A stretch of DNA of 64,000 nt from Blumeriella jaapii (taxonomy: Eukaryota; Ascomycota; Leotiomycetes; Helotiales; Drepanopezizaceae): the NCBI GenBank assembly GCA_009599575.1, contig VWND01000067.1, forward strand, positions 992,001 through 1,056,000, written 5' to 3'. The translations under genes and the position numbers were made by a program. The notes beneath the pieces are model-generated. The model had not been told where the DNA came from. It saw only the letters and a program-made list of their open reading frames with translations, and searched no databases. Shown piece after piece: positions 5,184 to 64,000 of this stretch; the stretch's first letter is position 1, and every line of letters starts with the position of its first letter.

Positions 5184-5229
5184 CACCTTCACAACATACA
5201 CGGATTCTACTTTTTGTTCGCAACAATCA

Positions 5230-6953: not shown

Positions 6954-7149
6954 TATTTCGGCCGAAAAGTATATTCGATTTTCGACGATACGGTTTTCGT
7001 AATCTTTTCGTAAAACACGTTTTTTTTTATTTCGTCAAAAGCAACCCATCCGTTTTTATCGGACTAGCTACGAAATAAATCTTAAGCTTTCGCAAACGAA
7101 TTAAAAAAAATAAATATCGATACTAATACTTTTATTTTTTAATAATAAA

Positions 7150-28301: not shown

Positions 28302-28336
28302 TATTCGCGGTGCCAATTTCGATAGCGACGCTAATA
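28302..28336 (-). repeat. 35-bp palindromic module (Gy-I copy D)
   Basis: Minus-orientation copy of the module defined at 57218-57252. Arms TATTCGCGGTGCC and AGCGACGCTAATA, 35 bp overall. Read in the pol frame it adds IRGANFDSDAN in the linker between protease and reverse transcriptase. See findings. Confidence 0.75.
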
Positions 28337-34313: not shown

Positions 34314-34439
34314 GTATATTTCAATCTGACGAAGCTTTTTAAGATTTAAAACATTTTAAAAGTATTGAAATAAAAGAATATTTTTATTTTTAATAGGTTT
34401 TTATTCATAAAAAGTATTTATTATTGAAAAGTTTTGATT

Positions 34440-34810
34440 CATAAAAACTTTTATTAATAACGATATTTTAACGTCGATTTTTATATTTACTATAAATTTA
34501 TAAAATTTAATAATATTTTTATTAACGGTCGTATAAATTATTCGTTTATCGGTAAAAATCGAAATTTTATATGCTTCGGCAGTTTCTTGATTTATATAAT
34601 TGATTTCGGCTTGATGTTCGAATAAAGCGAGGGCGGTAATGCTTTTTTTAAATTTTATTTTTATTTTCGATGCTTTTATAGCTATATAAAAACAGTGTCG
34701 TCGTTTTGAGTTCTGGGTTTTTATAACAAAAGCTAAAAGGCTGACTATTTAAAAGTATCTCTTTTATCGGCTAAATTGATTACGGCATTATATATTTTTT
34801 TTTTTTTTAT
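34440..34810 (-). mobile_element. Gy-II-related protease fragment
   Basis: The minus strand matches 54720-55030 of the complete Gy-II element: the plus sequence GAATAAAGCGAGGGCGGTAA (about 34621) is the complement of the ALALFDS segment (retropepsin box). About 370 bp, strongly RIP-mutated, flanked by unrelated DNA. The adjoining 34314-34440 is AT-rich, with repeated TTCATAAAAA-like words and no identifiable gene. Confidence 0.6.
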
Positions 34811-34890: not shown

Positions 34891-34987
34891 GGTACCAGTG
34901 GCGGGGTACCAGGGGCAGGGTGCCAGTGGCGGGATACCAGGGGCAGGGTGCCTGTGGCGGGATACTAGGGACACGGTGCCTGTGGTA
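34891..34987. repeat. 28-bp GC-rich minisatellite, about 3.5 units
   Basis: Units beginning GGTACCAGTGGCGGGGTACC, GGTGCCAGTGGCGGGATACC and GGTGCCTGTGGCGGGATACT follow each other at exactly 28-bp spacing. Each is itself made of two related 14-bp halves. It marks the left edge of the balanced-composition island. Frames crossing it on both strands (34898-35113 plus, 34837-35139 minus) are probably by-products of the repeat. Confidence 0.85.
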
Positions 34988-44173: not shown

Positions 44174-44219
44174 AGCTTGCTATCCTTCACAATATACACG
44201 GATTCTACTTTTTGTTCGC

Positions 44220-45920
44220 AACAATTATTAAATTTATTGCATTCGATTCGGAAAACTCGTTTTTTTCCGAATTTCGAAAAATCAGTTCGAAAGCTCGTCG
44301 CGTTCGCCGTACAGCTCGCGAAATGATTTTTTTCATTTTTTTTCGGTCGTCCGACGACCACGATCACGACCACAATTACGACGAATTATACATTCGCTTT
44401 ATAAACGCAATCTTACCGTTTTAATTGAATTTGTATTTTGAAAGAAAAAAATAAGCGAATATTTTTAGTATTCGCTTTTTTTCCTTCGCTTTAAAACACG
44501 AAGCGCGAATATTTACTATTGCAACGTCGGCTATTATTAATTAGCTCGACGAAGCAAACCGACAGTTTTAAATACGTCGCAAAATATAAGTATAATTCGC
44601 GACCGCTGCCGATAGCGTCGTAAATTAGCAAAAAAAGCCCGAAGCGCGATAATACGCCGAAAAATTTGCAAAAAGCTTTATTTTTTTTTGCAAACTCGCG
44701 CTTTTATCACTTTTTTCGCCGCTTCGCCAAATAACATCGATTTTTTTTCTTTTTTTATTAAATTAATTATTTAAGCAAATCGAATTTTATAAAAAATTTT
44801 AAAAATCTTAATAAATTCCGAAAAATTAAAATCGACTATTATTAAAAAACTATAATAATAAACGCGCCCGTTTATCAGCGGATTTTACGCGTTTTTTTAA
44901 ATTTGTTTATCGAAAATTAGCTAATAAAAGTTCGATAAAATTATCGCTTTTTAATTACGTCGGCGAAAAGCATTTTATTAAATAAATTTAATATTTTCGT
45001 TTTTAAACAAAAAATCGCGAAATTTATACCGGGCTTAACGAAAAACGCGATTAAAAACCTAACGCTTATAAAAACAAATTAAGCCTTTTATTTAATCGAT
45101 TTGAAAATTAAAGATTTTTTTATTATTTAAAAAAGCGTCGAAGTTTTTCGCAAAATATTCGGAGCCACCGCCGTACGTATTTCGAAAAAATAATAAAATT
45201 ACGCGGTATAAAACGTTTTAGCCACGGTTCCGAAGCTATTCGACGACGTTTTTTATTGCTTAAAATATATAAAAAACGAGGTTTTTATTTAAATAAAATC
45301 AAGCCGATTAATACGCGCTTTTTCCGATACAAAGCGAATCCAATTATAAATAAAAAAACTTAAATTATTTTTTTTTATAGCCAATTAAAAGCTTTACTTT
45401 TTTCGGCGTTAGCGCCTAAGCCAAGCTTATTAATAAAAAACCGGCTATATTTCGCTACGATTTTAAATGCTCAAACTTTTGCAATTTATTAATTTATATC
45501 CGATACGTTCGTTGCAATTATTATAGCAACCGAATATCAAATCACAATAGCCCGACCGGTTTTAATTATAAAACAGTTTTATAATACGCGAACTGCTATA
45601 AGCTATACGCTGCGAATTATTTACGCTGTTTTACGGCTTTTCGCCGCGTAAATAATAAAATAATACGATTAATTAAAAAAAAACTAAAAACTATTCGGCG
45701 ATTAAAAAAAACGGCTTATTCGATCGCGGTCATTTTTATTATTAAAACTTTTATTTTTTTAAATAATAATAATCCGGTTTTTAATAACGCGGGCCGAAAC
45801 GCGGAAACGTCGTAACGGCATACGAGCAAAAAACCATCGCATTTTTAATTATTATTTTCGCCGCGGCTATAACGTTAAACGTAATTTTTTCGAGCCGTTT
45901 AATTCGGAATTTAATTTTAA
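44220..45920 (+). pseudogene. LINE copy 2 ORF1
   Basis: Counterpart of 5230-6953. The frame 44212-44424 keeps an Asp-His repeat (DDHDHDHNYDE) where copy 1 has Asp-Tyr. The Cys/His region (about 45470-45650) is recognisable but several Cys codons are mutated. Confidence 0.65.
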
Positions 45921-46139
45921 AACAATCGCTGAATATTTAGCATTTTAGCCGAAAAACATATTCGATTTTCGACGATACGATTTTTATAACTTTTTCGCAA
46001 AGCATATTTTTTTTTATTTTATTAAAAACAATTTATCCGTTTTTATCGGATTAGCTACGAAATAAATTTTAAACTTTCGTAAACAAATCAGAAAAAATAA
46101 ATATTAATATTAACATTTTTATTTTTTAATAATAAAACA

Positions 46140-47010
46140 TTTATATAAGCAACGCGAAAAATTTCGTAACCGAAAATTTAAAACAAATTTTAATATTTAT
46201 TAAGCAAACGTTTAAAAAAAACATCCGAAGTATATTACGCTTTTGTATTTATACGATGCAAAGCGTATAAATATAATTTGCGTACAAAAATTCTAAAACG
46301 CTTCGAAAACTAAAACATAAAACTATTCGTTATACGATTTGTATATATCGATCGATTTATAAAACGAAACCGAAAAGAAAATCTTCGAGCAAATACGCTT
46401 TAAAATACTGATTTATATCCGAAAAAGCGTAAAGCTTAATTTATAATAACGACGATTAATTAACAGCAAAAATTTATTTCAGCTAAACGTAAATATATAT
46501 TTTATTTTTAACGTATATAAATAAAGCTATATTTAATAAATATTAAATTACGTAATATATTTCGAATTATTTTTCAATTATATAATAAACGGCGATTTTA
46601 ATGCTCGATACGATATTTTTAAGCCCGGATCGGATACGACAAAAAATAAAAAATATTTCGCGGATTAAGCTGTTATTTCGGATATAAATTTTATCGGCGC
46701 CGTTAGCGAATTTATTTATAATAAAAAATACGTTTTGAATTTTATTTTTTCGAACGTATTTAATTCGATTATTACGATACGGCACGATATCCATAACGGC
46801 TTAAATCACAAAACTTAAATAACGATTTTTTTTAGCAAAAAAAAAATACTCGTAATTCAAATATATTATAAAATACCCGATTTAAAATTCGGCAAATTCG
46901 CAAATTTAATACGCGCAAAAATCAGCCGATTCGCGGATTCCGTTATATTATCAACGCTTAAAAAACTAAACGAATATACGGCTGCGCTGGCCCGGGTTTT
47001 TTAAAAAAGC
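46140..47010 (+). pseudogene. LINE copy 2 ORF2, endonuclease domain
   Basis: Counterpart of 7150-8020, with the GDFNARH box read as GDFNAR-YDIF (about 46590) and the terminal SDHE region at about 46800. Interrupted by many stops; the minus-strand frame 46567-46794 is its shadow. Confidence 0.7.
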
Positions 47011-47649
47011 ATTATAGCTGCCGGGAAGCTTTTTTAAAAAAGTTTACAAATTATTTTATAATAAACCGACGAATATTAAAAAACTAAAAACAAACATTTG
47101 CGAATACGCAAAATAATATACGACGGTGAAATTCTCGAAAAAACCAAGCAATTCTTCGTTATAATACGCAAAGCGAAAAAAAACTATTAGCGAAAGCTTA
47201 TTAACGGAATCGATAATAACGAAAAGCTGTATAAAATAATAGGCTAGCATCGAATAATTACGAATTTTAAAACTTTTTTATTAATAATAAATAGCACGGT
47301 AATCGAAAATATCAAAAATAAAACTAATGTTTTGAAAAACGAAGTATTTGGCCGCTTTTTAGCTAACGACGATTTCGATTAAAATCCTTTTATCGAATAA
47401 GCAGAATCGGGCCATTTTTTTTAAATAAACTCCGTATTGTTCGAAAAAATTAAAAAATATTACATCGGAATTATTAATATTTCTTCGGATATTAACCGGA
47501 TTACGGTAAAACTTTTAAAAGCTTATTAAAAAAAAATTAAAACCGTTATATATAATTTATTTAACCGCTGTTTCGCAACGAATTATTTTCCGACTTTATA
47601 AAAGCTGGCCGAAATAGCTATAATAATTAAAATTAATAAACGAAATAAA

Positions 47650-48450
47650 AATTTTTTATATTCGTAGCGCCCGATCGATTTTTTTTTTATATATTCAAAA
47701 GCTTCGAAATTATCGTTAGCAAAATCGCGTAAACAACGCTTACGACCGGCCTATTTAATTTATAATATAAAAGCGCTTTTCCGAAACGCTTTGCTTTCGA
47801 TCTGGCAGCGTATTTTACGGCCGATATCGAAACTGCGTTCGCCGCTAAAAAATATATTACGATTATTATTTTAAACGTGTAAAACGCGTTCGACGCCGTT
47901 TTAATCCGACGCCTATTTAAAAATAACCGAATAAAAAAAAAATTTTATTTTTTTTATTAATTAAATCGTTTTTTACGAAACGACGAATATAAATACGATT
48001 CGAAAAAAAAACCATCGATTTCAGCTACGTTTATTACGGCACTTTTTAAAAATCGCTATTTTTCCCGGTTTTATTTATATTATACTTAATAAAATTGCTT
48101 AATCAAAATTTTATTTTTCGCTTTAAATACGCAAACGATATACTAATTTATCGTATTTTATATAATTTAAACGATAATATCGAATTATTTGCGAAAAACG
48201 TTCGCGATATTTTCGAATAAAAAAACGAATATAAAATCGTTTTCGCGCCGGAAAAAATCGAAATAATATATATTATTACGTAAAATAATAAGTACGTTTT
48301 TTCGATTATAATCGACGATAAAATTACGATTTTTTGTATTATTACGACGAAAAAAAACAAGCAATCCGCGCTGCGCTAACTAAAGATTTGATTCGATCGA
48401 AAGCTTATTTTCAAACGATACGTTAAAAAACGCGTAAGCAAAATATAATA
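47650..48450 (+). pseudogene. LINE copy 2 ORF2, reverse transcriptase
   Basis: Counterpart of 8650-9450. The V-x-N-A-F-D-A-V box (about 47875-47900) and F-x-Y-A-N-D-I-L box (about 48120) are visible, again with Asp-to-Asn changes. Confidence 0.75.
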
Positions 48451-49129
48451 AACGGCGTAATATATCAAAAGTTTCGGCCGAATTAATAATAGCCTTTCGG
48501 CCAGCGCGCTGCGAAAAGCAGTAATTATTTATATTTTTTTTTCGATATTATTTAAAACCGAAATTTAATACGCAGATCGTACGAAATTTAAACGCCGAAT
48601 CGAACGAAACAGCCAAATTAATATCCGTTTCGGCGGTTATATCGATTTAATATAAAAAATTATTATTTTAGCCGTACGAAAAGTACTTTTTATATAACGC
48701 ATTATTTTTTTTATTATAATAATACGAAACGCAAGCTTTTTTTCCGCGAACGCGGCTTTAAAAAAAGCCAAAGCACGTTTTGCGATAAAACTGCGAATCG
48801 TAAACGAAACGCATTTTTTAATCCAACGTATTTTTATTTTAATAGTTTCTTGAAATAAATACGCGGGTATATATATAGCCGCTAAAACGAAAATCCAGCG
48901 CTTCGGCGATATTTTTTTATAAATCCTACGATTTAAATTAATTTTTTTGCATTTTTCGCCCGGCAGCCGCACCGATTTTATTATAAGCGTTAAAAAAAAA
49001 ACCGCGGAAAATTTTAAAAAATAATAAGCAAAACTATTTTTCGAAAACGTTACGATTTTTTCGAACGGCTGCGAAAAATATAAAAACGACGCTTATTTCG
49101 TAGGCTACAAATACGTTATATACAAAAAC

Positions 49130-49905
49130 CGCAAGCAAATAGCGTTTAAATACGGCTCGATAAACGATTATTTCTACGTTTTCGACGCAAAAGCGATAAA
49201 AGCATAAAAAAGCTTATAAAAAGCTGCGAATATGCCAGCCGAAATACGCACGTAAAAATTATAAATATATATCGATAATATTTTAGTAATTTAAAAAATA
49301 CGCGGAATACTTTTTTATTTTTTTTATAAGCTTTTTTGGCCTGTTAAAAATAATAAAAACATATAACGTAAAAATCAAATAAACACCGGGCTATACGGGC
49401 ATCGAAAATAATAAAGCCGCCGATAAACTAGCAAATGCGAATATAAAAAAAACTTTTTAAAATAAAAGTTTTGCGTTCGAACCGATTGTAAATAAAATAC
49501 GTTTCGATTTCAGAAAAATGCGAGATTCGCATCGAAGCCGCTAATAAAAAACAGCTAGCAAAAAGCTTTTACGAAATTATAAGCGGTAGAATCCGGTTTA
49601 CGCAGTTAAACTTTTGCCGAAGCTCGATATACCGAAACGATTGTTTATTATTATTTAGCGATTAAAATTATTTATAAAAATTACGAATAATATTACGTTA
49701 AATATAATTATACCGACGCCGAATTGCGTTGCAAATGCAAAAAGCTTAAAATTTTATTATATTTAATATTATACCGTCGCGCGATCAAACGTTTTTTTAA
49801 TAGTCTAAAAAAACTCGATTAAACGCTTTTTTCCGAACCGAACGAAAAGCCGTAATATTTTTTAAAAACCTGTTTTACGAGCCAAAAGATTTTGTAACGT
49901 TTTTA
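49130..49905 (+). pseudogene. LINE copy 2 ORF2, RNase H and partial C-terminus
   Basis: Counterpart of 10150-10930. RNase H box PGYTGIENNKAADKL at about 49390-49430; the terminal Cys/His region (about 49700-49790) is present. The frame ends at the junction with Gy-I sequence at 49905/49906. Confidence 0.75.
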
Positions 49906-51662
49906 ATATTAGTTCGAAAGCAATTGCGTAGTTTTGCGAGCGTTAAAATAAACGGTGGAAATTTGGTCGTGCATTTTTCGTATAAAAGCTAAACGAAAAT
50001 AATCGACGTTTGGGATTATTAAACGATCGTAATATAACAGCAAATCGCGTTTAAGCGTATACGAAATATTATTATCGTCGTATTTTTTCGTAGCGTTTTA
50101 TACAGCTTTTTTTCGAAAAGTTATTAGGCTGCTAGTTATGCGATTAGCGTAAAAAATTTGATTAATAATACGAAGTGCGGAAAAAAGATTAGCTATTTCA
50201 ACGATAAAAACAGCTGTTTCGAAAGCCGTGGAAGATCGAAGTTTTTTAATTAAAAAGCGATAATTAATCTGATTTGTTCGAAAAAGGGTTTGCAGACGCT
50301 AAATGCGTTTAAAAAAGTTTTAGCGGTCGAGTTCGTTCGTACGACGTGTTAATACGTCAGCTAAAAAATTATGTTTATTTAATTTGTACGTAATAAAAAA
50401 ATTATAATCGGCGAAAAGCTCGGCCTAGCGTGCTTATCGAGCGTTTAAAAGTTTGGAAGTTATAAAGTATTTCAAAGCTTTATAATTAGTAATTATTTTG
50501 ATTTAATAAATTAAATTAGCTAATTTAATACGAAAATTGCTTAAAAATTTTACGATTGCGAGCATTTTTTTATCGTATACGACGTAGTTTAGTTTTGCGA
50601 AAGCTAAGATTTTGCTAAAATAAGCGACTGGAAACCAGTCGTTATTATAAAATTGCGAAAACATAAAAGCTATTACGCCGTCGGAAACGTTAGTTTTTAA
50701 TATGCAAAAAAAATCTTGCCTGTAATATTATAAAACTGGTGCAATAATAAAAGCTAATGTAAAAAGATCGAAACTTTTTTAATATTCAAAAATGAAATTA
50801 TAAAAAACGTTAGCTTTGGTCAAATAAATTAAAAGCTTTGCAATTATACCGTAGTTTCGAATAAAACGTTGATAAAAGTGACAAAAACCAAAAAAGCTTT
50901 GTACATTTTTTATAATAATAAAAGGTTTTTAATAAGCGATCACGAAGATTTTTTTTAAGTTTATTTTTAAGCTTTTAATAAAAATAATAAAACTTAAATA
51001 ACGGATTCGAATAACGTTGAATTTAAATTTCCGAATATCGGCTTGTAATTTAGCGTCAGCGAACTTTTAAAATATTTTGCGAACGTATATAGCGTATTTT
51101 AAAAGGTCGGACGAATAAATAAAAATATTATTTAAATATGCAATATAAAAATCGTTTAAATAATCAAAAAAAACGTCGTTTATATAGCGTTAATAAATTA
51201 CGGATTTATTAAAAAAGCCAAAAAGTAGTATTTTGCATTTATAAGCGCCGTAACGCGTACGAAATATCGTTAGTTTTTTATTAGCGGGATTTATTCGAAT
51301 TTTGTAAAAGATTTAACGAATATCGAGCTTTGTAAAAATTCGCGTTTTCGAAAAACGAGCAAAGATTTTATCGATAAAAAAGAAAAAATAGCGATTTTTA
51401 CGAATAATATTATTAAAAGCTCGATAATCGATACAAAAACGTAATAAACCGTCGGGTTTTTTAATAAAAAGCATTGAAACAGCGAAAAAAGCGGTGAAAA
51501 ATTCGATAAAGTTTTTATTAAAATTATTTTGCAAATAAGTTTTAATAATTTCGAGCTTCGAAATCGATATTTTGTATAAAAAAATATATTTTAGCTTTTT
51601 TTTATTTATAATAAGCTCGATCTTATAATCGTAAGGCCGGTAAAAAGCTAGCTCGTTATTAA
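49906..51662 (-). pseudogene. Gy-I copy E/F pol: integrase part, RNase H, RT
   Basis: Minus-strand Gy-I sequence equal to about 18470-20215 of copy A. RT is best preserved at 51313-51534 (IKKPDGLLRFCIDYRAFNN, FTKLDIR). RNase H covers about 50340-50900 and a partial integrase 49906-50330. The right edge (51662) is the insertion site of the complete Gy-II element; the same pol resumes at 62948 with a short repeat (TTAA/TTAG) on each side. Confidence 0.85.
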
Positions 51663-51929
51663 TGTAAAACGGTGATACCTTGTATTGATAAGAGTTGGTA
51701 GTTTTAGCTATGGTCGAGGCATGGATCCTTCCGAGACCCCCTGCTATTAACTATCTTCAACAGGTATAAAAGCAAAGCATCTCCTTAAATAATATTATAA
51801 GCACGCAGTTTAATTCATACTTTTACTTATTTTTTTTTTCCTTTTTTCAGTTTCTTCTAGAAATTCCCTAGACTATTTTACCCATCGACATATGGCCGTA
51901 TTAGTTTGGTTTTCCTATCTACTTTTACA
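51663..51929 (+). repeat. Gy-II 5' LTR
   Basis: TGTAAAACGG...CTACTTTTACA, 267 bp, canonical TG...CA. Much less RIP-mutated than the interior. A TATA box (GGTATAAAAGC, TATAAAAG at 51765-51772) supports promoter function. Confidence 0.92.
51765..51772 (+). promoter_or_regulatory. TATA box in Gy-II LTR
   Basis: TATAAAAG, conserved in the 3' LTR and in copy C. Confidence 0.55.
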
Positions 51930-52671
51930 TTTGATAATCTACGCAAAGATTCAAACTTCGGTATTTCGTTTTTATATATTCGCCGATGCATCTTTTAAGT
52001 TTACAATCAAAATCGATTTCGATATTTCGCCACTACGGCTTAAAAGACTTTTTATATAATATTATTCGCAGTTATATTATATAAAAGATTTTTAATAACT
52101 TTTTTTATTTTGCGCATAATTATTAGATTACAAAAATGCAATATATCTTAAAAACGTTTAAAATTACGGTCAGGCAATTCTAAACCGTGCGAAGTTTAAA
52201 GCTCGAAAATCGCTTTTTTATTTAAAAATAACAAATCGAATATTGGTTTATACGCTTCGACCGCTGCGCTCGGCTTTTTTAATTTAGATTTTTCTTGGTC
52301 AAACGCTTGGCGAAAATTCAACCTTCTGATTTTACGCTTTGTAATTATAGCAATTACAATTTGCGGCTTTTTATTAAAAATAGTAAAAATGGCTGTACGT
52401 GCATTGGTTTGAGCCACGGAATATCGAAACCGTAAATCATACAGCAATATTATATTAATTCAGTTAACTTACTAAAAAATAAATTTTTTAATATATTATT
52501 TAAATATTTGGACGCAATTTTATTTTATTTAATTTTTTCAAAAAACACAAAAACCTTTTTGATAGCTCTTTTATTAAAAACGATTTTTTTCACGCTGAAA
52601 ACCTTTAATTTGCAACTTCAGAAAACACTCATTTATTTAATTCAAATCTTATTAATACTTTTACTAATACT
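51930..52671 (+). other. Gy-II 5' leader
   Basis: Untranslated-looking AT-rich leader between LTR and gag; the same sequence flanks the LTR of copy C (25754 downward). The chance frames 52196-52447 (minus) and the start of 52508-52882 (plus) show no family features. Confidence 0.5.
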
Positions 52672-54110
52672 ATGGACAACGACGCTTTTCGTTTTCTTAT
52701 GCGAGGCCGCATGCTTCTTTTTGGCTTTTTTGGTGCATTTTTATTTAATAGCGCCAACGTTACCGATTTTATCGAGAAATATAAAAAAACTTATAAGAAT
52801 TTCGGAGTTTTTAAGACCGAAATATTCGATAAACTTTTTTGCTATTATGATTCAATTATTAAAGATATTATTAAATCGATAAATAAATAAAAAGCTATTA
52901 AGGCTCGAAACTGGCGTAAGCTGGTTAAAGCTTTGAAATCGGAATTCCGAAACTACGATCGCTAGCAAATTCGCGATACTATCGCTTTTTTTAAGCAGTT
53001 TGTTATAACAATCCGCTAAGTTAAAAAACTCAAAGCTTATTGTCGTATTTATACGAAAGTTTTTAACGTTCTGGTTAACAAAAAGGTTTTAAGCGAAATT
53101 AAGCAGAAAAAGTTGTTTTTACTTGGCCTTTTAATCAGCATTCGCAACAAAACTATTAAATATTTTAAAATTAATAAATAAAACCTTGAAACTTTCGATT
53201 AGTATTTTAAATTTGTAAAATTCGTTTTTAAGCAAAACTAAAGCGAACGTATTATTAAAGCCATAAACCAAAAAAAATCTTCTTTTTTTATTTATAAAAA
53301 AAACGTGGAAGCTCTAATGCAGAAATATGCTTAGCTACTAAAAGTTACCGAAATCGCCAAGAAACAATCAGTTATTATATTATTTAATCGTTTTGCAAAA
53401 TTTATTAGCTTAAAAAAGTTTAATAAAAACATCGAAACTTTCGTATTAAAATTTACCGATATTAAAATTTAAAAGCTTTAAAGCAAAATCGAAAGTCTTA
53501 TACAGCAGCAGAAAAAACTTTTTTACGTTAATTCGAATAATAAAAACGACCAAAATAGTTTTTACAATAATTATTTTTTTTAAAATACGCGAAGCGATCA
53601 GCTTCGCCAAGCTATCGTAAAAATAATAGCTGCCCAATAGCAACTTCTCCGTGCTAACGATTAAAATCAGCGAAATACTAATTATAATAACGATTATCAG
53701 AAAAAAAAAGGAAACCAGCGCGAAAACCAAAATCGCGACTATTAAAATAATAAAAGTAATTATTAAAACAAACCCTGTGGTTTTAAATATGGATTCTGTA
53801 ATAATAAAAAAATTCATTGCGAAAAACCTTATATTCGTTTTAAATGCAAAGCATTTAATTTTTATATAAACAATAGTATTTGTTATATTAATAAATACGG
53901 AGCGATCTGCTTCGGACCGACGGAAGCAGAAATAAGTTTTTTTAACAAAGCTGAAAACCAAAGCTGATTAAATATTATTCGCTTAAAAGTAAAAAGTACG
54001 AAATAGAACGATTGCTTAAAAAACAGAAAAGATGCAAAACGATTTTTATTAATAAAAGAAAAAACATTTCAAAAAGCGTATTAATTAAAAAGAAAACCTT
54101 TATCCTAAAT
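52672..54110 (+). pseudogene. Gy-II gag
   Basis: ATG at 52672 opens a frame that reads through RIP-type stops for more than 1.2 kb. N terminus MDNDAFRFLMRGRM, then NSANVTDFIEKYKKTYKNFG, the start of the capsid-like region of this Gypsy group. A helical body follows (RNYDR, DTIAFFKQFV, LKAYCRIYTKVFNVLVNKK), then an Asn/Gln-rich linker (53660-53800). A Cys-bearing segment (HCEKPYIRFKCKAFNFY..CYINKYGAICFG, 53815-53915) probably derives from a zinc knuckle. The minus frame 53446-53961 is its antisense shadow. Copy C (23388-25754) is the same gene on the opposite strand. Confidence 0.72.
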
Positions 54111-54119
54111 ATAAATAAA

Positions 54120-55130
54120 GTTTAAATATATAAATGGAAAACAAATATATATATTATTAATATAAGTATCGCATTTGCAAATATTATAGCTGCGCAATTA
54201 AGCCAGCGAATCATAAAAAAGCAAAATGCTTCTGTTTTATTCGTTAAACCAATTGATAAAAAAAAAAACGTCAGAATCGAAAAGGAAAAAGATTTTGAAA
54301 TTCGAAAAAAAACCGATGAAACTATTAGAAAAACGCTTATAATAAAAAAAATTAACGACGATATAAAAGATATCGATATCGACATTCCGATTCAAATCAT
54401 TTAAAAAGTACCAGCTTTTAAGCGTTCATTATTAATGCGAAGCGAGAAATAAATCGATAAATATATCAGCCCCGAAGCCGTCGACGAAGCTATTAAAAAA
54501 ATTATAAAATAAAAAATTAAATTAAAATTCAACGATTTATTTAGCACAGAAAAAAGATTCGACAAAATTATTAACAAACAAATTTTTGTATTAAAAAAAA
54601 ACGAAAAAATTAAAATTATTCGAAAAAAAAACGATTTTAAATTGGAAAAAAACCAGAAAAAAATTTATAATATCGCAGTTAATTTAGCCGACGGAAAGAA
54701 ATCCTCGGAAAAAGTCAGCTTTTTGGCTTTCGCTATAAAAACCTAAAAGTCAAAACGACGAAACTGCTTTTATACGGCTATAAAAGTATTAAAAATAAAA
54801 ATTATATTTAAAAAAAGTACGACCGCCCTCGCTTTATTCGATAGTAGAGCCGAAGTTAATTGCATAAATCAAAACAGCCGAAGCTAATAGTGTTTCGATT
54901 ATCATCGATAAGCGAATGATTTATATTATCGTTAATAAAAATACTATTGAGTTTAATGGAATTGTACGAAATATAAAAGTGGACGTTAAAAATATTGTTA
55001 TTTATAAAAACTTTTTAATAATAAAAAAATGCTTTTATTTTATTATTTTTGAAATACCCTGGATTTTGGAAAATTTCGTCAGCTTTAAATACACCGAGAA
55101 CGGCCAGATAAAAGCTTTTTTTTGAAACTG
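54120..55130 (+). pseudogene. Gy-II linker and aspartic protease
   Basis: After a charged linker (FEIRKKTDETIRKTLIIKK; later KVPAFKRSLL and YISPEAVDEAIKKII) the frame reaches ALALFDSRAEVNCIN (about 54835-54880), a retropepsin D-S-G-A-E-V-N box with Gly changed to Arg. The open piece 54916-55125 continues the protease-like fold (IIVNKNTIEFNGIVRNIKVD; FIIFEIPWILENF, expected G-x-P-W). The linker resembles the conserved region found between gag and protease in large fungal Gypsy polyproteins; I do not assign it a formal domain. Confidence 0.65.
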
Positions 55131-55272
55131 GAACCGATTTTTTTAAGATTAAATTACCGTCGCCGGCGATAAGATTTTTTTAATCGACGTTTTATCGGGA
55201 AACGAATAGCCGGCTTTAGTTTTAAAACAGACGCTGGGCTATAATAAAACCTGGAAAATATTCGGCTAAAAG

Positions 55273-55307
55273 CATTCGCGTTATTAATCGAAATGACACC
55301 GCGAATA
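55273..55307 (+). repeat. 35-bp palindromic module (Gy-II, protease-RT linker)
   Basis: CATTCGCGTTATTAATCGAA... ending ACACCGCGAATA. In the RT frame it reads AFALLIEMTPRIK. See findings. Confidence 0.72.
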
Positions 55308-55639
55308 AAATTGGTTAATATTAATATTTTTGGTTATTAACTCGGAAATAAAAGTTTCGAAAATTTCGTTTTCGTATTAAACAAACCCGATTTATATATT
55401 CTACCTTTTTGTATTAATATCAGCATTTTTTATAAGCGCAAAGCTAATAAAATACGATTCGTAAATCTTAGCGAATCCGATAAAGATATTTTCGGAAAAA
55501 TAAACGATTGGTTCGAAAAAAACGAAGTAGCAAAACCATTCCAATCAGTTACTAGCGAATTCGAAAGACTTATTATCGGCCGATTTTCCAATTTATTATT
55601 TGACAGCCGATTTATAAAAAAACGATTTAATAATTTAGC

Positions 55640-56560
55640 AATCGAAACCTAATTTTTGTCAAAAAAGAAAAAGATTTTGTACGAAGTTTTACGCAATCGA
55701 GAAAAGGTAATAGCTTTCGATTTTACCGAAATAAGCCAATTCAGCTTTGACGTTACGCTTTATATTAATATTAAAACCGTGCCTTACGAAGCCTGGCAAA
55801 AAAAAACCTTTTCAGTTTTTAAAGCTTTCCAGGATAAAATAATCGAAATGTTAAAAAAACGAATCAAGCAAAAAATCTTCGAATTCTGCTACGGCTTATA
55901 CAAAAACAAATGGTTTATCGTTGCGAAAAAAAAAAAAAACATTTATAAATTTATTACCGCAGTCGTCGAAATAAACAAAATAACGATACGAAACGCTAAC
56001 GTGCCATTTAACGTCGATTAATTTTCGAACGAATTCGCAAGATTAACGATCGCTTTCTTTTTCGATTTGTTTTTCGGCTACGACCATTTGGTATTTAATC
56101 TACGATTTCGAAACATAACGGCAATTTAAATATTAATCGGTCTGCTGCGTATAACGAAAGTACTTATGGAAGCTATTAATTTAATCGCTTAATTCGTAAA
56201 AATCGTATATAAGATTTTTATAATTTATATTTCTAATATTACTTTTTTTTACGTTAACGACGGCGGAGTAAAAGACTCCAGATTATATTACAATAATAAA
56301 AAAATCCTTTTTAAAATTCGACGTTATATAATAAAACACATTTAAAATATCGATAAAATTATGGTCTGCTTCGAAAAAGCCAAAGCTATTATTGACTTTC
56401 GATTAAAATTTTGTATGCCCGAAATAGATATCGTTGGTTATATAACTAATAGCGCTGGCCGTTATTTTCAACGAAAAAAAATTAAAAAAATTTGCAAATA
56501 AAAAAAATATAAAAATATTACCGAAACCAAAACTTTTATTAGGGTTGTGATTTACTACCG
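55640..56560 (+). pseudogene. Gy-II reverse transcriptase
   Basis: The open stretch 55656-56021 holds the RT N-terminal region: EVLRNREKVIAFDFTEISQF, TVPYEAWQKKTFSVFKAFQD, KIFEFCYGLYKNKWFIVAKK and INKITIRNANVPFNVD. This is the distinctive series of a large fungal Gypsy group in which the substrate loop reads TVPHKAW and NPWFLVKKK. Motifs A to C follow with stops (about 56080-56300). Catalytic boxes are degraded. The frame differs from those of protease and RNase H, so indels have occurred. Confidence 0.85.
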
Positions 56561-56689
56561 CAATTAAATTAAAAACTTTTTTTAGAAAGCTGCATTTATT
56601 TACGCCACGATAAAAAAAAATCGATTTCGTTTAAAAAGAAAAGCAAAGCAAAGTTATAAAAGTTTTTAAAAACGATTTTTTATCGGCTT

Positions 56690-57115
56690 TATCGCTTATG
56701 CGGATCGATTACAGCCTAGACGCAGAAGAAATTATTTTGATTATCGACGCTAGTATTTTCGGTTAAGGAGTTATATTATAACAAATCGATAAAAACAAAA
56801 AACGGCATTTTTTACGATTCGAAAGCGGCTTATAATTCTCCGCGGAAATACGCTACGATATTATCAAACGAAAATATCGAAACGCTTTTAAAATAATAAA
56901 AAAAATAAAAAGCGAATTATACGGCGTATATTTTATTTTGAAAACAAACGCGAAAATTTTTATCGATTAATTAAATAAAAAAGCCAATAACTTATTAAAA
57001 GCATTCGTTATTAATTAAATAGCTTAAATACGATTTATGGATTTCGAAATCAAATATATTAAAAGAATAATTAATACAGCGGCAGACGGCTTTTCCAAAC
57101 GAAAACGTTTTTATT
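56690..57115 (+). pseudogene. Gy-II RNase H
   Basis: RIDYSLDAEEIILIIDASIFG carries the first catalytic Asp (DASxxG). KKRHFLRFESGL and EIRYDIIKRKYRNAFKIIKK (K-R-E to K-R-K) follow, then VYFILKTNAKIFID and YIKRIINTAADGFSKRK. Domain order and spacing are complete. The linker that follows contains two tandem copies of the palindromic module. Confidence 0.85.
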
Positions 57116-57217
57116 CGTCTGATTTCGCTGAATAAAACGAATAAAATATTAACGAATAAATTGCTAACGAAATCGGCTGCTTTGTTATTTGCGCTTTGGG
57201 TTTTATAAAGCCAAAAC

Positions 57218-57252
57218 CATTCGCGTTGCTATTTCGGTTGGCATCGCGAATG
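57218..57252 (+). repeat. 35-bp palindromic module, copy 1 of tandem pair
   Basis: Arms CATTCGCGTTGC and GGCATCGCGAATG; the outer 8 bp of each arm are perfectly complementary. Loop about 9 bp. Confidence 0.85.
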
Positions 57253-57280
57253 AAAAATATTAATTTTCGGGCCGAAAAAG

Positions 57281-57315
57281 CATTCGCGTTATTATTTCGG
57301 CTGGCACCGCGAATG
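57281..57315 (+). repeat. 35-bp palindromic module, copy 2 of tandem pair
   Basis: CATTCGCGTTATTATTTCGG ... CTGGCACCGCGAATG; 63 bp downstream of copy 1, so in the same codon phase. Confidence 0.85.
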
Positions 57316-57479
57316 GATTTGACCGAAAACGATCGGAATAAGCAAATTAACGACGAAAATAAATTTTTAATCGATAATTACGAAACCGAAAACTTTTATT
57401 TAATCGTATATTATTTAATTATTTTATTTAAACTATTTAGCGTGCTAAATTATTAGTTTAAATTATTTAAAAACCAAAC

Positions 57480-58540
57480 TTTCGATTATACTTTAGCCGA
57501 CAGAAAGTTATATAAAATAAAAAATAATATATATTAAAAACGCTTAATAATAAATAATAAAGCTGACAAGTTTTAAATTATAAAAAAAGCCTACGAAAAA
57601 GTGTTTTATAAAAAAGCTGAAGCCATTTATTACCGAATCAAAAACGACTTTTGATAGAAAAGTTGCTTCGAAAATTGCAAAGTTTTCGTTAAAAGCTGTA
57701 TTTTTTATTAAAAACGAAAGCTTGGCCGAAAAAAACTTATTATATCCGACGTGGTTTTTTAGAATTTAAAAAAAAGTCAATTTCGATATTACACGCGTAC
57801 CGACCACCGATCGCGGTTATATATATTTCGTGCTCGCTATTAACGATTTATTTAAATGGCCTGAAAAAAAACTTTTCCGAAACGTTATTTTCGAAGTTAT
57901 AGCGATTTTTTTTTAAAAAAACGTTGTATATCGATACGGTTTGTTTAGCAAATTAAACGTCGATAATAAATCCGAAAACAAAAGCGTTATCGAAACTTTT
58001 ACAAAAAAATACGGAATTCAGCGTATTTAAATCTTAGCTTACAATTCGAAAAGCAACAGATCCGTTAAACGAAGTTATAAAAATATTTTCGACGGCTTTT
58101 TAAAAGTTATTCGAAAAGGCTATAAGCGTTGGTTACGGAAATTTTCGGAAATGTTTTTTGTTATGCGCATATATATACACGCTTTTATTAAAATAATCCC
58201 ATTTTTTATTTAATACGGCAGAAACGCCCGATTATTTAAAAACAAAATGATTTGTGTAAAAGCTTTATAACGTAATTAAAATAAAAACAAAAGCTGATTT
58301 ATTAGCAATAAGATTTAAATAGCTAAATTACCGCGATATAAATATAAAAAAGATAATTTTAAGAAAAAAAAGATATAAAAAAGCAATCAAAAAAGTTTGA
58401 AATAGAATTAAAGTTTTAAAAAAAACGCTAATTAAAAAAGAAAATTTGGTTTTAATTTACGACGTTCAGCGCGCTATCGACAAATCGGCCGATATTAAAC
58501 TTAATTATAAATAGTTCGGACCTTACGAAATATACAAGGC
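57480..58540 (+). pseudogene. Gy-II integrase
   Basis: Starts with LADRKLYKIKNNIY and the zinc-binding region (AYEKVFYKKAEAIYYRIKND, SCFENCKVFVKSCIFY; Cys pairs kept at about 57660-57705). The catalytic core lies at 57780-58240 (TRTDHRS for the first Asp region; the DGG-like segment near 57960). It ends in a basic region and the LINYKxFGPYEIYK-type GPY/F module at about 58500-58540. Many stops. Confidence 0.78.
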
Positions 58541-58544
58541 CGAA

Positions 58545-58760
58545 TTGGATAAAAGCTATTATAAGCTTACGGAACTCGATGAAATAAAATTAAAAAAAAC
58601 GTTCGCCGCTAACCGGTTAAAGCGATTTTATAAAAAAAACCAGCAAATTTACCTTTTGGATTTCGAATTAAAAAGCGACTCCGATTTTAGCGATTCCGAC
58701 GACGATTCCGACCAAAGCGATTATACTTCTAAAAAAGAAAAATCCTTTAGAAAAGTTTAA
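58545..58760 (+). pseudogene. Gy-II pol C-terminus
   Basis: Open 71-codon piece: YYKLTELDEIKLKKTFAANR, LKRFYKK, then an acidic Ser/Asp tail (DSDFSDSDDDSDQSDY). This matches the end of integrase proteins in this group (E-L-D-G-x-x-L-K-x-T-F-A-x-N-R-L-K-x-F). There is no chromodomain. pol therefore ends near 58760, leaving 3.9 kb before the 3' LTR. Confidence 0.8.
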
Positions 58761-59661
58761 AAACAGCCGAACGATAACCCCGCTGCTGAAATCACAGTTT
58801 AAATCGTAATTCCATTTATAATCGAAAAAAAGAAAAATGTTTACAAGATTGTTTACTAACTGTTTTATTATTTTCGTTGTTTATTGTTTTTCTTTTTTAT
58901 TATATACTGTTTTATTGTTTTCGTTTTGCTTTGTTTATATACAATTTAATTATTTTGTTTTATATATATTATTTATTTTTGAAACTTTTTTTTATATTAT
59001 TTAAAACACTTATTGTATTTTTCTTTGTTTGATTGTACTTTTGTTTACCAAAACAAAAGCTTTGTATATGTTTAAGCCGCATATTTAATATATTTATATT
59101 ATTTATATAATTTACGAAAACTATTTTTTATATATTTTATTATTTGCTACTTTTTGCACTATTTATTTTTTTTATTATTTTAAACGGATGCTTATTTAAA
59201 CAATTATAATTTATTGGAAAAACAATATGCGAATTCTCGTAACTTTTAAATACAAATATCTTATAATTTTCGTATTTTTTTTTAATTATTTTTTAATAAA
59301 TACAACACATTTTTTTAATTAACGAACCTATCGATATCATATCGTTTTTTAAACAAAGCGTTGCTAAACCTGGCAAATTTATTTTTAATTTATTTTAAAA
59401 CGGAACTATTATACGCAACCTTTCCGAATTTAAATAAGCATATAATACCGCTATTTTAAATTAATAAGCAGCTTTCGTAAAAATATTTATAAAGCAATTC
59501 GATATAATAACTGGAAACGTTAACGAATTTTTATTCGATTACGAAAGCTTCGTTAAAGCTAAATTCGTTTGCAAAAGTTTTAATTACGATAAATTTCTGT
59601 TAAATTACGATAACGAAAAGCCTTCGCCGGAGCAAAAAAAGCTCGAAATAACAAAAAGGAG
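58761..59661. other. T-rich spacer between pol and ORF3 of Gy-II
   Basis: Low-complexity T-rich plus strand with repeated TGTTTTATTATTTTCGTTGT-like words (58860-59160). No frame or motif seen. May contain the promoter or splice signals of the downstream frame, but I see none I would defend. Confidence 0.5.
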
Positions 59662-62510
59662 ATGACAGACCGGATTTTACGTTTTTTGTTAAATTAACGA
59701 AAAAAAAATATTTAAAAATACGTTTTTAGTAAAATTACCGGTATTATTCTACTTCGGCATTTCGCTCGCCTTTTCGAAATTATTATTTTTATTAAAAAAA
59801 GAGTTTGGGTATTAAACGCTTATATTTTTAAAGCGCAAGCTTTGAAAGCTAATAATTTAAAAGCCCGCAGGTTCACAGGCCTTTTTACAACTGTTTGCAA
59901 ACTGGTCGACGACGTTATGCAATCGTTAAAAAAAGTTTTAGTCGATTGCGAAATTTTAAATTTGATCTTTTTTTAAAGCAAAAGATTAAATATCGCTAAG
60001 TGCGGTATTTTTATACCGAAAAAAAAAAACGACGCTATTTCGATATTTTAAATTTACGACGACGAAAAGAACGAAAAAGCTAATATTATTTTCGTTTAAT
60101 TCGAAAAAATATACGCGGTAATAATTAATATTTTCAAAGCAGCTAAAACAATTTAACGATTTTTATTTTTAATTATCGAAAACGAATTAAAAAACGAAAC
60201 CAAAAGCGTAACAGCAGACAACCGCTTATTCGAATACAAAAAGTTTATTATGCTTATAAAAACGATTCCGGAAAAAGTAAAAACAAAAGACGTGAAAAAG
60301 CGCGCCGACATTTTCGAAACTTTTTTTGTTCGGAGAAAAAAACTATTCGCGTTGCTAACAAAAAAGGCACCGCGAGTAAAAACAGCCGGAAATCAACGCC
60401 GAGCTATAAGTTTTAAGCTAATTAATAAAAAACGCGACGATTTTACAAAATCAGATTTAAAAAACTCCGGCATTTCGAAAAAAAAAAATTCAAACGATTT
60501 TGAATTTAATTTTTCGAAATTAAATACGCAAATATCAAAAACGTTTATTGCGTTTAAAAACGTCGAACCGCTAATATTTCAGATTTTAATAAAAGCATTT
60601 AAAATCTCGACTATTGCACGACTCGACCGAAAAAGCTTAAAAAAAGATATCGAAGTTATCGCGGAAAAAATTATATAAAAAGCATAAAATCAAATTACTT
60701 TATTTAAAACTTTCGTTTTCGACGACGAAACAATTTAAAAGTTTTACTTCGACACTTTTATATAAAAACCAAATAAACCTGTTAGTTTTTTCTTTTTTGC
60801 TTCGAACGAAAACTAAATTAAGCTTTTTTCGGAAAATTATAAGTATAATACGCTAAAGTAAATAAAAAAAACTTTTGAAAACGGTAATCCGTTTTTATTC
60901 GAGTTTTTCTTCGTTGAGAAATTTCGATTTTTTAATTTCGTTTTTACGAATAACGTTAACGTTAAAAAAGACGGCAAGTTTTGTTATTTTTACGTACGCT
61001 GTTACGCGGCGTACTGCGATTTAATTACAAAAAAAATTAACGTTATCGGCTTCGCTAATCGATTCGCTGCTATTAGAAATTCGGATTACGACGTATTCGA
61101 AATTAATTTTAATAACTAATTTATATTTCGACGAAAAACTGCGAGAATTACTTAAGTACGTACTAAAGCTTATTTGGGCTACGCAAATTTTAAAGCAGAT
61201 TCTAAGGCTTTTAGCGCGATTATAAAATTCGATTAAAACGTAAAAAAGTGGAAGCAACGAATATTTTCAAAAGCCGACTTTTCTGGCCTTTCGACCGAAA
61301 ATGTTTTTCAAAGTTTATTCGAACTAAGTTGCGAATTCGTTAATTACGTAAGATTTCACAACGGAAACAAGCTATTGCTGCATTTTATAAAAAAAAAAGT
61401 AGTTATATATAAGCATTATTTCCGATTGGTTAAAACCCAAAAAGCGCTTACAGCTTTTTTCGCTAATATATTTTACAGTTTTATTTAATAAGTTTTTAAA
61501 ATGCACCCCGGCTTTTACTTCGCTGTTTTAATTATTCGGAATCTTGGAAACTACCGCTTCGTAGCATACTTTAACATTCCGATCGCTTTAGGTTTCGCTG
61601 ATCCCGATCGTATTACAATTACAAAATTCGATATCGCCGATTTTCAAAAAGAAAAAAAAATCGAAAATCTTATCGACGTTATTTTCGATTACCATGTTTT
61701 GCTTATATTCGTATATAACTCGGAAATAATCGAAGCTTATTTGCAATTATACTACGACGCCAAGCTGATTAAAACCATTTAGAAAAGCCTAGCTTTCTCG
61801 TATTTCAGCGCGTCTAAAACAGTGGCTTTGGCTATTTTATCGGATTACGAAACCGAAAGCTACGGAATAGAAAATAAAATAATTTTTGTCAGCTTTTCGA
61901 TTAAGCAAAAGGTTTTCGTCAGATTCAGGACCTAAAAAACCGACGGCGCGATATTAATTTATTCGAATAATTATACGGCGCAAAAATATAAAAACTATTT
62001 TAAAAACGACAATCCGATAAGCAATTCGATATTATTTATATTGCGGAAAAAGCAATTATAACACTTTTGATGATTTCGATTGCAAACGACTACTTCCGAA
62101 TTATTCCGTGGAATAGTCTTTTTTATAGGCTTCGGAGCTTTTTCAAAAGCATTCGTCGGTAAACAATCGTAGTCCGATTTATTAGTTTTACGCGAAGCAA
62201 AAGCGTTAATCGGTTTTAATTACGACGAATTAATCGATTATTTTTACGATTTTAATATAAGACTTTTCAGCGCTTTTTGCAAAGCGTAAAACTACGTTCA
62301 GAAATTAAAATCTATTATTTACGAAGAAAAATCGTAGAAAGCATTCGTCGCGGCGACATTTAATAATATTATCGACGAAAAAGCTATTAAAACGTTCGTA
62401 GGTTTAGACGATATTTCGATTGATATTTTATCGAGCTATTTTTAAAAAAGCAGGATAAACAAAATGATTTAAACGATAAGCGAAACGCTATCTTTCCGCA
62501 GGAGCTAATA
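59662..62510 (+). pseudogene. Gy-II ORF3: long unrecognised extra reading frame
   Basis: From ATG 59662 (AAAGGAGATGAC) a single plus frame can be followed for about 950 codons. Almost all its breaks are TAA/TAG/TGA of the kind RIP makes from Gln and Trp codons; 60250-60678 (143 codons) and 61501-61779 (93 codons) are open in exactly this frame. Readable segments include RHFARLFEIIIFIKKRVWVL, LKARRFTGLFTTVCKLVDDV, KPSRF-like basic linkers with a palindromic module (60344), a Cys cluster (FCYFYVRCYAAYC, about 60990), HPGFYFAVLIIRNLGNY, and GLDDISIDILSSYF near the end. No signal peptide, fusion peptide or clear membrane anchor is visible. The position is that of an env gene, but nothing in it supports that; function unknown. 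Confidence 0.6.
60344..60378 (+). repeat. 35-bp palindromic module (Gy-II ORF3)
   Basis: TATTCGCGTTGCTAACAAAA ... GGCACCGCGAGTA, read LFALLTKKAPRVK in the ORF3 frame; same codon phase as the other three Gy-II copies. Confidence 0.75.
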
Positions 62511-62671
62511 GCAAAAAGGCCAAAAACGGATTAGGAAACCGAAGGAATATAAAATTAAAAAGTTTGGTTTATGGTTAATTGGTTTTTAAATCATATAAAA
62601 TAAACTAGATTACATTTATTAAAATTATGTTTTTTTTTGGTCGTAATCAAAAACGATTACGTATGTTATTT

Positions 62672-62680
62672 AGGACAGGA
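62672..62680 (+). other. Putative polypurine tract of Gy-II
   Basis: AGGACAGGA immediately before the 3' LTR, the usual place for plus-strand priming. Confidence 0.4.
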
Positions 62681-62947
62681 TATAAAACGGTGATACTTTG
62701 TATTAATAAAAGTTGATAGTTTTAGCTATGGTCGAGATATGGATTCCTCCGAAACCTTCTGCCACTGACTACTTTCAACAGGTATAAAAGCAAAGCATTC
62801 TTTTAAATAGTATTATAAGCACGCAGTCCAATTCATATTTTTATTTATTTTTTTTTTCCTTTTTTCAGTTTTTTCTAGGGATTCCCTAGACTATCTTACC
62901 CACCGATATATGGCCGTATCAGTCTGGTTTTCCTACCTACTTTTATA
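62681..62947 (+). repeat. Gy-II 3' LTR
   Basis: 267 bp, same length as the 5' LTR; starts TATAAAACGG and ends CTACTTTTATA, with TG and CA ends altered by transitions. Confidence 0.92.
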
Positions 62948-63407
62948 TTAGCGGTTTTAAAAAACACGTATTCGAGGTTTTTGTACTTCGGGGAAAAAGA
63001 TTCGAAAAAAAGTTTATTCGAAATTAACTTTGCTAAGCTAGTTAAAAAGGTCGAAATCGATATTTCGTTGGTTTTAAAACGTTCGAAAAAACTGTAAAAT
63101 TGGATTTTAAAAAAAATATTATACGTAAAATCGTTTAATATTTTATCGATTTTATACAAAAAGATTAAAAACATTTCAATTGCTTTTTTTTAAAAAATCA
63201 ACTTAAAAGCGCATATAATAATCTGGCAGATAAAAATTGGATAAGCAATAAATTAAAAAATTCGTTTTCGAATTAATCGTTTAAAAAGTTCAGAAAATGG
63301 CTTATTTAAATTATCGATTATATTAAGCTAAAAAACTATCGCGGCGAAAGCTTTTTTTCGGTTTTTAATATAATTGTTTTTCGTAAAACGAAAAAGCTGT
63401 TCTGACG

Positions 63408-63446
<39 letters not shown>
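63408..63446. repeat. 39-bp A homopolymer inside Gy-I pol
   Basis: Uninterrupted A run (plus strand). Copy D has, at the same place (28377-28414, opposite strand), a 38-bp pyrimidine tract of mixed C and T. Confidence 0.9.
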
Positions 63447-63448
<2 letters not shown>

Positions 63449-63486
63449 GGCAGCCTAAAAAAATAATATAATTTTTTGTATTATTT

Positions 63487-63521
63487 TATTAGCGTCGCTA
63501 TCGAAATTAATATCGCGAATA
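63487..63521 (+). repeat. 35-bp palindromic module (Gy-I copy E/F)
   Basis: TATTAGCGTCGCTATCGAAA ... TATCGCGAATA; the copy E/F counterpart of 28302-28336, on the opposite window strand. Confidence 0.72.
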
Positions 63522-64000
63522 AAATTCGAATTTTTCGCGCTTCGTATAGCGTCGTAAATCTGCTATAATTAATTAAGATTTTTATTACGTTTTACAGCAT
63601 CGTTTTAATAGCGAAATTAAATCTTTCGAAAATGCAAATAAAAAACTTTAATATAACGAACGTAAAAAACTATAAAAAGGTAAGATTTCGGCTAATAAAA
63701 CTTGCGTTTATTACATTTTAATAAAACTTAATATTCGGCCAACTAAGCTTTTTTTAAAATTATATTATAATTTCCGAAATTAATAATCAAAAAATAAATA
63801 AACGATTGTATTCGGTTATTAATAAAAAAATTAAAAAGCGTAAAATATATAATTAAATAGCCACGAGTTTTATTATACTTTTTTATAAAAAAAAGAGCCG
63901 GGAAAAATTAAATCAAAGGTTTAAAAAAAAAAAAAAATTTGATTAGCGCCGAATCGATTAACGCATAACCGTTCGCTTTAAAATCGGCGAACGCTTTTAT

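What the first reader, a model, noticed from the sequence alone, without database searches (positions are those of the whole stretch)
57218..57315. A 35-bp palindromic module inserted in frame in polyproteins of two Gypsy families
Six copies of a 35-bp near-palindrome (arms like CATTCGCG...CGCGAATG) are visible: 55273-55307, 57218-57252, 57281-57315 and 60344-60378 in Gy-II, and 28302-28336 and 63487-63521 at one homologous site in Gy-I, in opposite orientation relative to pol. All are exactly 35 bp. The four Gy-II copies all begin at the second base of a codon and encode variants of x-F-A-L-L-x-x-x-x-x-P-R. All lie in inter-domain linkers (protease-RT, RNase H-integrase, ORF3), never inside a fold. 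Same length, same phase and unrelated hosts suggest a mobile micro-element tolerated within proteins, reminiscent of the palindromic elements described in Rickettsia genes. I know of no fungal counterpart.
Basis: partly seen in the sequence, partly recalled or inferred. Interest (0 to 1): 0.88.

Follow-up and report, generated by a model that had tools for sequence, protein, structure and literature searches.

The report
Palindromic coding module in fungal retrotransposons
A 35-base near-palindromic DNA cassette sits at four in-frame sites in one jumping-gene family of a presumably fungal genome and at a fifth site in another family; it was likely copied there as a sharply bounded unit and now seems to multiply only with its host elements, much as short palindromes do in yeast mitochondria and Rickettsia.

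Summary
In detail: all six 35-bp copies lie where stated, and a loose pattern finds 1,428 relatives in the 47.4-Mb genome, reversed control 0. The anatomy is two arms (14 and 13 bp) around an 8-bp spacer. Between sites the arms differ almost only by transitions, as RIP would produce; spacers differ by transversions; flanks are unrelated. Sites B and C share nearly the whole 35-mer, spacer included, and similarity drops at its edges, so it was copied as a discrete unit. Gy-I carries it on the other strand, in another codon phase, with another peptide, so DNA rather than peptide is shared. It is hardly dispersed: 3 of 1,428 copies lack the A found two bases downstream of all known sites. Copy number thus reflects retrotransposition of two hosts. 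No empty site was found, so inserted length and any target duplication stay unknown, and a few places remain unclassified. Closest analogues: yeast mitochondrial GC clusters (in frame in var1; stems constrained, loops free) and Rickettsia palindromic elements. Template switching at A-tracts during reverse transcription is my preferred, untested mechanism.

The parts
55273..55307 (+). Module copy A, Gy-II pol, read by eye as the protease-RT linker; reads A-FALLIEMTPRI-K
57218..57252 (+). Module copy B, Gy-II, read by eye as the RNase H-integrase linker; reads P-FALLFRLASRM-K
   Evidence: 38 distinct copies of this site compared
57281..57315 (+). Module copy C, starts 63 bp after B, same spacer as B up to one transition; inner stem lost (GC to AT at positions 11-12) in nearly all copies
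60344..60378 (+). Module copy D, Gy-II ORF3, inside a 173-aa open stretch; reads L-FALLTKKAPRV-K
28302..28336 (-). Module copy I, Gy-I pol (pol is on +), protease-RT linker; in the frame taken for pol reads IRGANFDSDAN
   Evidence: 536 places of this type in the genome at up to 2 mismatches
63487..63521 (+). Second copy of the Gy-I site (this Gy-I copy lies on -)
57232..57239 (+). Variable 8-bp spacer of copy B (positions 15-22 of the module), an example of the part that differs by transversions between sites
51662..62949 (+). Gy-II element that hosts copies A-D; 270-bp direct repeats 51662-51931 and 62680-62949 (86.7% identical) read as its LTRs

Best explanation
A discrete 35-bp near-palindromic DNA module, two nearly invariant arms around a variable 8-bp spacer, occupies four in-frame sites of one Gypsy-like family and one site of another; it was likely copied between sites as a unit and now appears to multiply only as a passenger of its hosts' retrotransposition. 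Shown: sharp edges between B and C, arms free of transversions with free spacers, both orientations, and near-absence outside the five sites for sequences close to the known arms. Inferred: the copying happened during reverse transcription. The hairpin would stall the enzyme, the A-tracts near the module would give microhomology for a jump to another RNA and back, and co-packaged Gy-I and Gy-II RNAs would let it cross families; the near-palindromic arms would let the interior be copied in either orientation. Copies that kept the frame in tolerant stretches would survive, and each host family then amplified its own. Later RIP would explain the transitions in the arms.
For: B and C copies agree at 0.8 or more at 28 of 35 positions, with a fixed GC/AT difference at 11-12 and partial ones at 1, 23, 25, 27 and 35; outside they fall to scattered matches, apart from AAA one base upstream (31 B and 18 C copies, 300 sampled pairs). 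Means over 38 B and 38 C copies: arms 0.83, loop 0.92, 40-bp flanks 0.27. For the other nine site pairs: arms 0.73-0.91, 7-nt loop 0.03-0.55, 40-bp flanks 0.29-0.40, nearest 10 bp 0.23-0.53. Transversions against window copy B: in 27 arm positions 0 in 1 A, 1 in 38 B, 1 in 38 C, 0 in 6 D, 2 in 2 Gy-I copies (both position 5); in the spacer 3 (A), 0 (B), 1 (C), 30 (D), 4 (Gy-I). A T x C mismatch inside the stem is found at every site. Gy-I has the module on the other strand and in another phase. Confinement: 3 of 1,428 copies lack A at +2; none has C or T directly after it under the pattern; 4 outer-arm matches have G or C at the tested second base outside, against 1,091 with any base but A there. 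Of the first 100 of 1,428 places 18 coincide with exact Gy-I-type hits, 72 have Gy-II spacings, 10 are unlinked. In-frame AAA codons stand before 4 of 4 and after 3 of 4 window Gy-II modules, though AAA is 99 of 730 codons in the pieces counted.
Against: No empty site was seen, so insertion itself is inferred; the one test (site C, coded flanks, gaps 0-9) found none and had no filled count by the same flanks. Reverse transcription as the route has no direct support. Only one of six modules passes a strict hairpin scan and the window has no excess of such hairpins; C and both window Gy-I copies fold little or no better than shuffles. If template switching were frequent, more than five sites would be expected. 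Sites were recognised by their arms, and B and C copies were fetched by arm patterns, which biases arm conservation upwards. The 8-bp spacer was set after seeing that position 22 varies. Unclassified and possibly new sites: the 10 unlinked places (some tied to Gy-II by other calls) and two of the four.
Confidence: 0.5

Rival explanations
1. The module is a DNA-binding or site-specific recombination site: two 13-14-bp half-sites around an 8-bp spacer, the layout of lox and FRT sites (layout recalled), bound by a recombinase or host factor, with coding merely tolerated.
For: Arms nearly free of transversions while the spacer is free, yet the directly repeated pair B-C shares one spacer; an asymmetric mismatch in the stem at every site.
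Against: No recombinase domain in the Gy-II ORF3 pieces scanned. I did not search for B-C deletion products. The sites lie inside reading frames.
Confidence: 0.15
2. It is a peptide repeat, such as a processing site of the retrotransposon protease (K-x-F-A-[LS]-L-x3-A-P-R), duplicated to separate domains.
For: The four Gy-II copies share frame and peptide, and three lie between domains as read by eye.
Against: Codons recur up to transitions, not just residues: GCG and GCA for Ala (12% each of 40 Ala codons counted) and CCG for Pro (20% of 10); CGA for Arg is uninformative because it is the commonest. Gy-I encodes another peptide from the other strand.
Confidence: 0.12
3. It is an RNA hairpin that acts in cis in the retrotransposon RNA (packaging, pausing or translation).
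For: Copies B, D and A fold better than shuffles (z -4.98, -3.96 and -2.63).
Against: C (z -1.10) and both window Gy-I copies (z 0.18 and 0.66) do not clearly; the inner stem of C is lost in nearly all 38 copies; no excess of such hairpins in the window.
Confidence: 0.1
4. All copies descend from one ancestral Gypsy linker by vertical descent and ordinary duplication, without any mobile unit.
For: Most copies that could be classed are inherited with their hosts; A and the Gy-I site both seem to be protease-RT.
Against: Edges are sharp and flanks unrelated; orientation and phase differ between A and Gy-I.
Confidence: 0.08

Closest known systems
Yeast mitochondrial palindromic GC clusters (GC42; var1 insertions)
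   Same: Tens of bp, palindromic, stems constrained and loops variable, in-frame insertion in a coding gene reported, fungal (PMC4478555 and PMC8811140, passages)
   Different: Mitochondrial, most often intergenic, at sites that vary between strains, with a target dinucleotide; here on large contigs, inside two retrotransposon families, at five sites, no demonstrated target duplication
Rickettsia palindromic elements (RPE)
   Same: Palindromic repeat inside pre-existing reading frames without destroying them (PMC3767692, passages)
   Different: 100-150 bp, in various cellular genes of bacteria; here 35 bp and seen only in retrotransposons
PARCEL palindromic amphipathic repeat coding elements
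   Same: Coding DNA with dyad symmetry, associated with mobile elements (PMC2996958, abstract and passages)
   Different: 25-residue tandem protein repeat in microbial proteins; here single units and one pair

Membership tests
Rickettsia-type palindromic coding element | Palindromic unit inside open frames, frame kept | tested here: met
   Gy-II copies open in frame; Gy-I open through the module in the frame taken for pol
Rickettsia-type palindromic coding element | Found in many unrelated genes | tested here: not met
   Near-confined to five sites of two families for sequences close to the known arms; more diverged copies would be missed
Rickettsia-type palindromic coding element | Orthologues without the insert define its length | tested here: inconclusive
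   No near-empty C site found; protein searches with module-bearing pieces found no relatives
Palindromic GC cluster | Stem positions constrained, loop positions free | tested here: met
   with the arm recognition bias stated in the report
Palindromic GC cluster | Short target duplication at the edges | tested here: inconclusive
   AAA near both edges at A, B and D, near one edge at C and Gy-I; could be preference, duplication or microhomology
Palindromic GC cluster | Mitochondrial location | tested here: not met
   Copies lie on many contigs, the largest seen 3.1 Mb, in a 47.4-Mb genome
lox/FRT-like recombination site | A cognate recombinase acts on it | not testable with these tools
   No recombinase domain in the pieces scanned

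The most novel reading that the evidence does not exclude
A parasite of a parasite: a 35-bp palindromic cassette that lives only inside the polyprotein genes of nuclear LTR retrotransposons, jumps between and within them by hairpin-driven template switching in the virus-like particle, in either strand and frame, keeping its arms and leaving its spacer free. It would be the first nuclear, fungal counterpart of Rickettsia palindromic elements and mitochondrial GC clusters.
Probability: 0.3. Interest if true: 0.85.

Novelty: new variant of a known kind. Interest (0 to 1): 0.6.

Why it matters
It would show that coding-tolerant palindromic micro-elements are not limited to bacteria and mitochondria, and that a unit of 35 bp can be copied precisely inside retrotransposon genes and across families. 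With about 1,400 RIP-marked copies in one genome, it makes the old question of how tiny palindromes without any enzyme spread directly testable in a system that has its own reverse transcriptase.

Tried and rejected
Segmental duplication of B to C: rejected, flanks unrelated. Protein-level convergence: disfavoured by shared codons. Random genomic dispersal: rejected for sequences close to the known arms. The Gy-II-like stretch at 34432-34808 as an empty A site: rejected, the similarity ends before the site. A frame of Gy-I reading FAVPISIATLI: set aside in favour of the frame with fewest stops in copy 1 (10 of 350, against 19 and 26), which also holds the protease and RT stretches there; copy 2 does not settle it (25, 16 and 29 stops). 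Structure of the B-C stretch: uninformative (pLDDT 49). Arm patterns in viral contigs and genome contigs: 0 matches each. Homologues of the ORF3 and B-C pieces: none at E 0.01 and E 1. The Gy-I RT piece found 28 proteins; of six with an organism name five are Drepanopeziza brunnea and one Pyrenophora teres, so the host may be a related fungus, unproven. I fetched 10 of the 28; the longest named one (P0002) shows no linker that I could compare. A search for other discrete modules in the window gave 111 pairs; the 40 printed looked like parts of longer repeats, LTR edges and a tandem repeat. A guess that this was Leptosphaeria led nowhere. Misdesigned: pattern out of register, 0 matches; also admits site C; matches the known palindromes on their other strand. 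Papers: ten searches; among the titles listed, a part of the hits, I saw no nuclear fungal counterpart. Only titles and abstract starts were seen except for PMC2996958 (abstract, passages), PMC3767692, PMC4478555, PMC8811140 and PMC4210507 (passages).

Rows dropped: 101 of 159 module readings, other-strand readings included, fell outside the five classes and were not used. In one search, 7 readings were unassigned: two are the L064 copy of site A on either strand, one base under the threshold, so A counts as one copy; five look like chance matches.

Full report
What is there. The window lies in a 47.4-Mb genome of 91 contigs and is AT-rich (30% G+C). The six 35-mers are at the stated places. 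Four lie in one 11.3-kb element, Gy-II, bounded by 270-bp repeats (51662-51931 and 62680-62949, 86.7% identical). Two are the same site in two copies of a second family, Gy-I. I name the sites A (55273), B (57218), C (57281), D (60344) and I (28302 and 63487).

Anatomy. In the orientation of Gy-II a module reads arm (14 bp, YATTCGCGTYRYTA), spacer (8 bp) and arm (13 bp, RRCAYCGCGARTR). The outer 8 bp of the arms are fully complementary in B and C and nearly so in A and D, with more breaks in Gy-I; then comes a T x C mismatch found at every site (37 of 38 B, 21 of 38 C with T x T in 16, 6 of 6 D, the one A and one of two Gy-I copies), then a short inner stem. In the window copies the Gy-II sites differ in these arms only by transitions, and Gy-I has one further change at position 5; spacers differ by transversions at positions 15, 17, 18, 21 and 22. 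The spacer was set at 8 bp after seeing that position 22 varies. Over the copies in hand, transversions in the 27 arm positions against window copy B are 0 in 1 (A), 1 in 38 (B), 1 in 38 (C), 0 in 6 (D) and 2 in 2 (Gy-I, both position 5); in the spacer 3, 0, 1, 30 and 4. Loop (7 nt) against arm contrasts in the window copies have Fisher p from 0.00011 to 0.021 in seven of ten pairs; A-D, D-I and B-C are not significant. Sites were recognised by their arms, and B and C copies were fetched by arm patterns, which favours arm conservation. As a hairpin the module is imperfect: only 57218 passes a scan for 11 of 14 Watson-Crick pairs, and the window holds no more such hairpins (6) than shuffles do (2-9).

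A discrete unit. Position by position, B and C copies agree at 0.8 or more at 28 of 35 positions, with a fixed GC/AT difference at positions 11-12 and partial differences at 1, 23, 25, 27 and 35; on both sides only scattered positions agree, apart from AAA one base upstream. Mean identity is 0.83 in arms, 0.92 in loop and 0.27 in 40-bp flanks. A unit of 35 bp, or slightly more, has been copied without its surroundings. The Gy-I copies have it on the opposite strand. In the frame with fewest stops in Gy-I copy 1 (10 of 350, against 19 and 26; copy 2 gives 25, 16 and 29 and does not settle it) the module begins at the third codon base and reads IRGANFDSDAN, whereas Gy-II copies begin at the second and read FALL...R. 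So DNA, not a peptide, is common to both families. Two of three phases are free of stops in both orientations in all five window copies tested, so one shared phase within Gy-II is weak evidence.

Genome-wide. A 28-base pattern with up to 3 mismatches has 877 places, the reversed control 0; a looser exact pattern has 1,428, control 0; the Gy-I type has 536 with up to 2 mismatches, control 0. The tool calls such counts lower bounds. All five known sites have A as the second base after the module. Only 3 of the 1,428 do not. A related exact pattern with C or T directly after the module has 0 matches. A pattern on the outer arms alone (Gy-II type; Gy-I does not match it) with G or C as the second base outside has 4 matches, two of them among the 3, against 1,091 with any base but A there, most of which read the known palindromes on their other strand. 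Among the first 100 of the 1,428 places, 18 coincide with exact Gy-I-type hits, 72 have the Gy-II spacings (about 1,945, 63 and 3,063 bp, within tolerances) and 10 are unlinked; 2 of the 18 also met a spacing. At least two of the ten are Gy-II by other calls: C1:2807205 is locus L045, site D, and C1:3083823 lies at the A-B distance from a hit. The module is thus near-confined to five sites, and its present number is due to its hosts. The first-stage idea of a freely mobile micro-element is not supported for the present.

Empty sites. None was found. The one possible test, for site C flanks 0-9 bases apart with RIP-coded letters, gave 0, without a filled-site count by the same flanks. Protein searches with module-bearing pieces gave no relatives. 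The inserted length and any target duplication remain unknown. In-frame AAA codons stand upstream of 4 of 4 and downstream of 3 of 4 window Gy-II modules, while AAA makes up 99 of 730 codons in the pieces counted; 7 of 8 has a binomial chance of about 6 in a million by my own arithmetic. This fits a target preference, a 3-bp duplication or microhomology.

Mechanism. The unit lies in genes of elements that replicate by reverse transcription, it is flanked by A-tracts, some copies can form a hairpin (z: B -4.98, D -3.96, A -2.63, but C -1.10 and Gy-I 0.18 and 0.66), and it occurs in both orientations and two families. Template switching at A-tracts, with the hairpin as a pause, would explain these but is inferred throughout. 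Arms nearly free of transversions may reflect need for the hairpin, a bound protein, or recent copying.

Comparison. Yeast mitochondrial GC clusters are palindromes of about this size; GC42 has constrained stems and variable loops (PMC4478555, passages), and var1 forms differ by in-frame insertions of GC clusters (PMC8811140, passages). Rickettsia elements are 100-150 bp and sit in frames without destroying them (PMC3767692, passages). PARCELs are longer tandem coding repeats (PMC2996958, abstract and passages). This module works like the first two but fails the test of wide dispersal, and it lies on large contigs of a 47-Mb genome. I file it as a new variant of palindromic coding elements, not as a member of either.

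Limits. Gy-II domains were read by eye, since Pfam recognised none of the pieces scanned, while Gy-I RT, RNase H and integrase pieces were recognised. RIP is inferred from the excess of transitions and low G+C; no RIP index was computed.

Noticed in passing
63408-63446: A run of 39 A in one Gy-I copy, close to module copy I, where the other copy (near 28390-28425) has a shorter, interrupted tract.
   Followed up: no
34895-34964: G+C-rich tandem repeat with a period of about 28 bp in an otherwise AT-rich window.
   Followed up: no
59716-62500: Gy-II carries a long third ORF after pol; the open pieces scanned match no Pfam family above its cut-off.
   Followed up: partly
51662-62949: Gy-II appears inserted into a Gy-I copy: Gy-I sequence continues at both ends (49904-51658 and 62951-64000).
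   Followed up: partly
5186-10930 and 44184-49903: Two 86.8% identical copies of another long repeat without a module at 13 or fewer mismatches.
   Followed up: no
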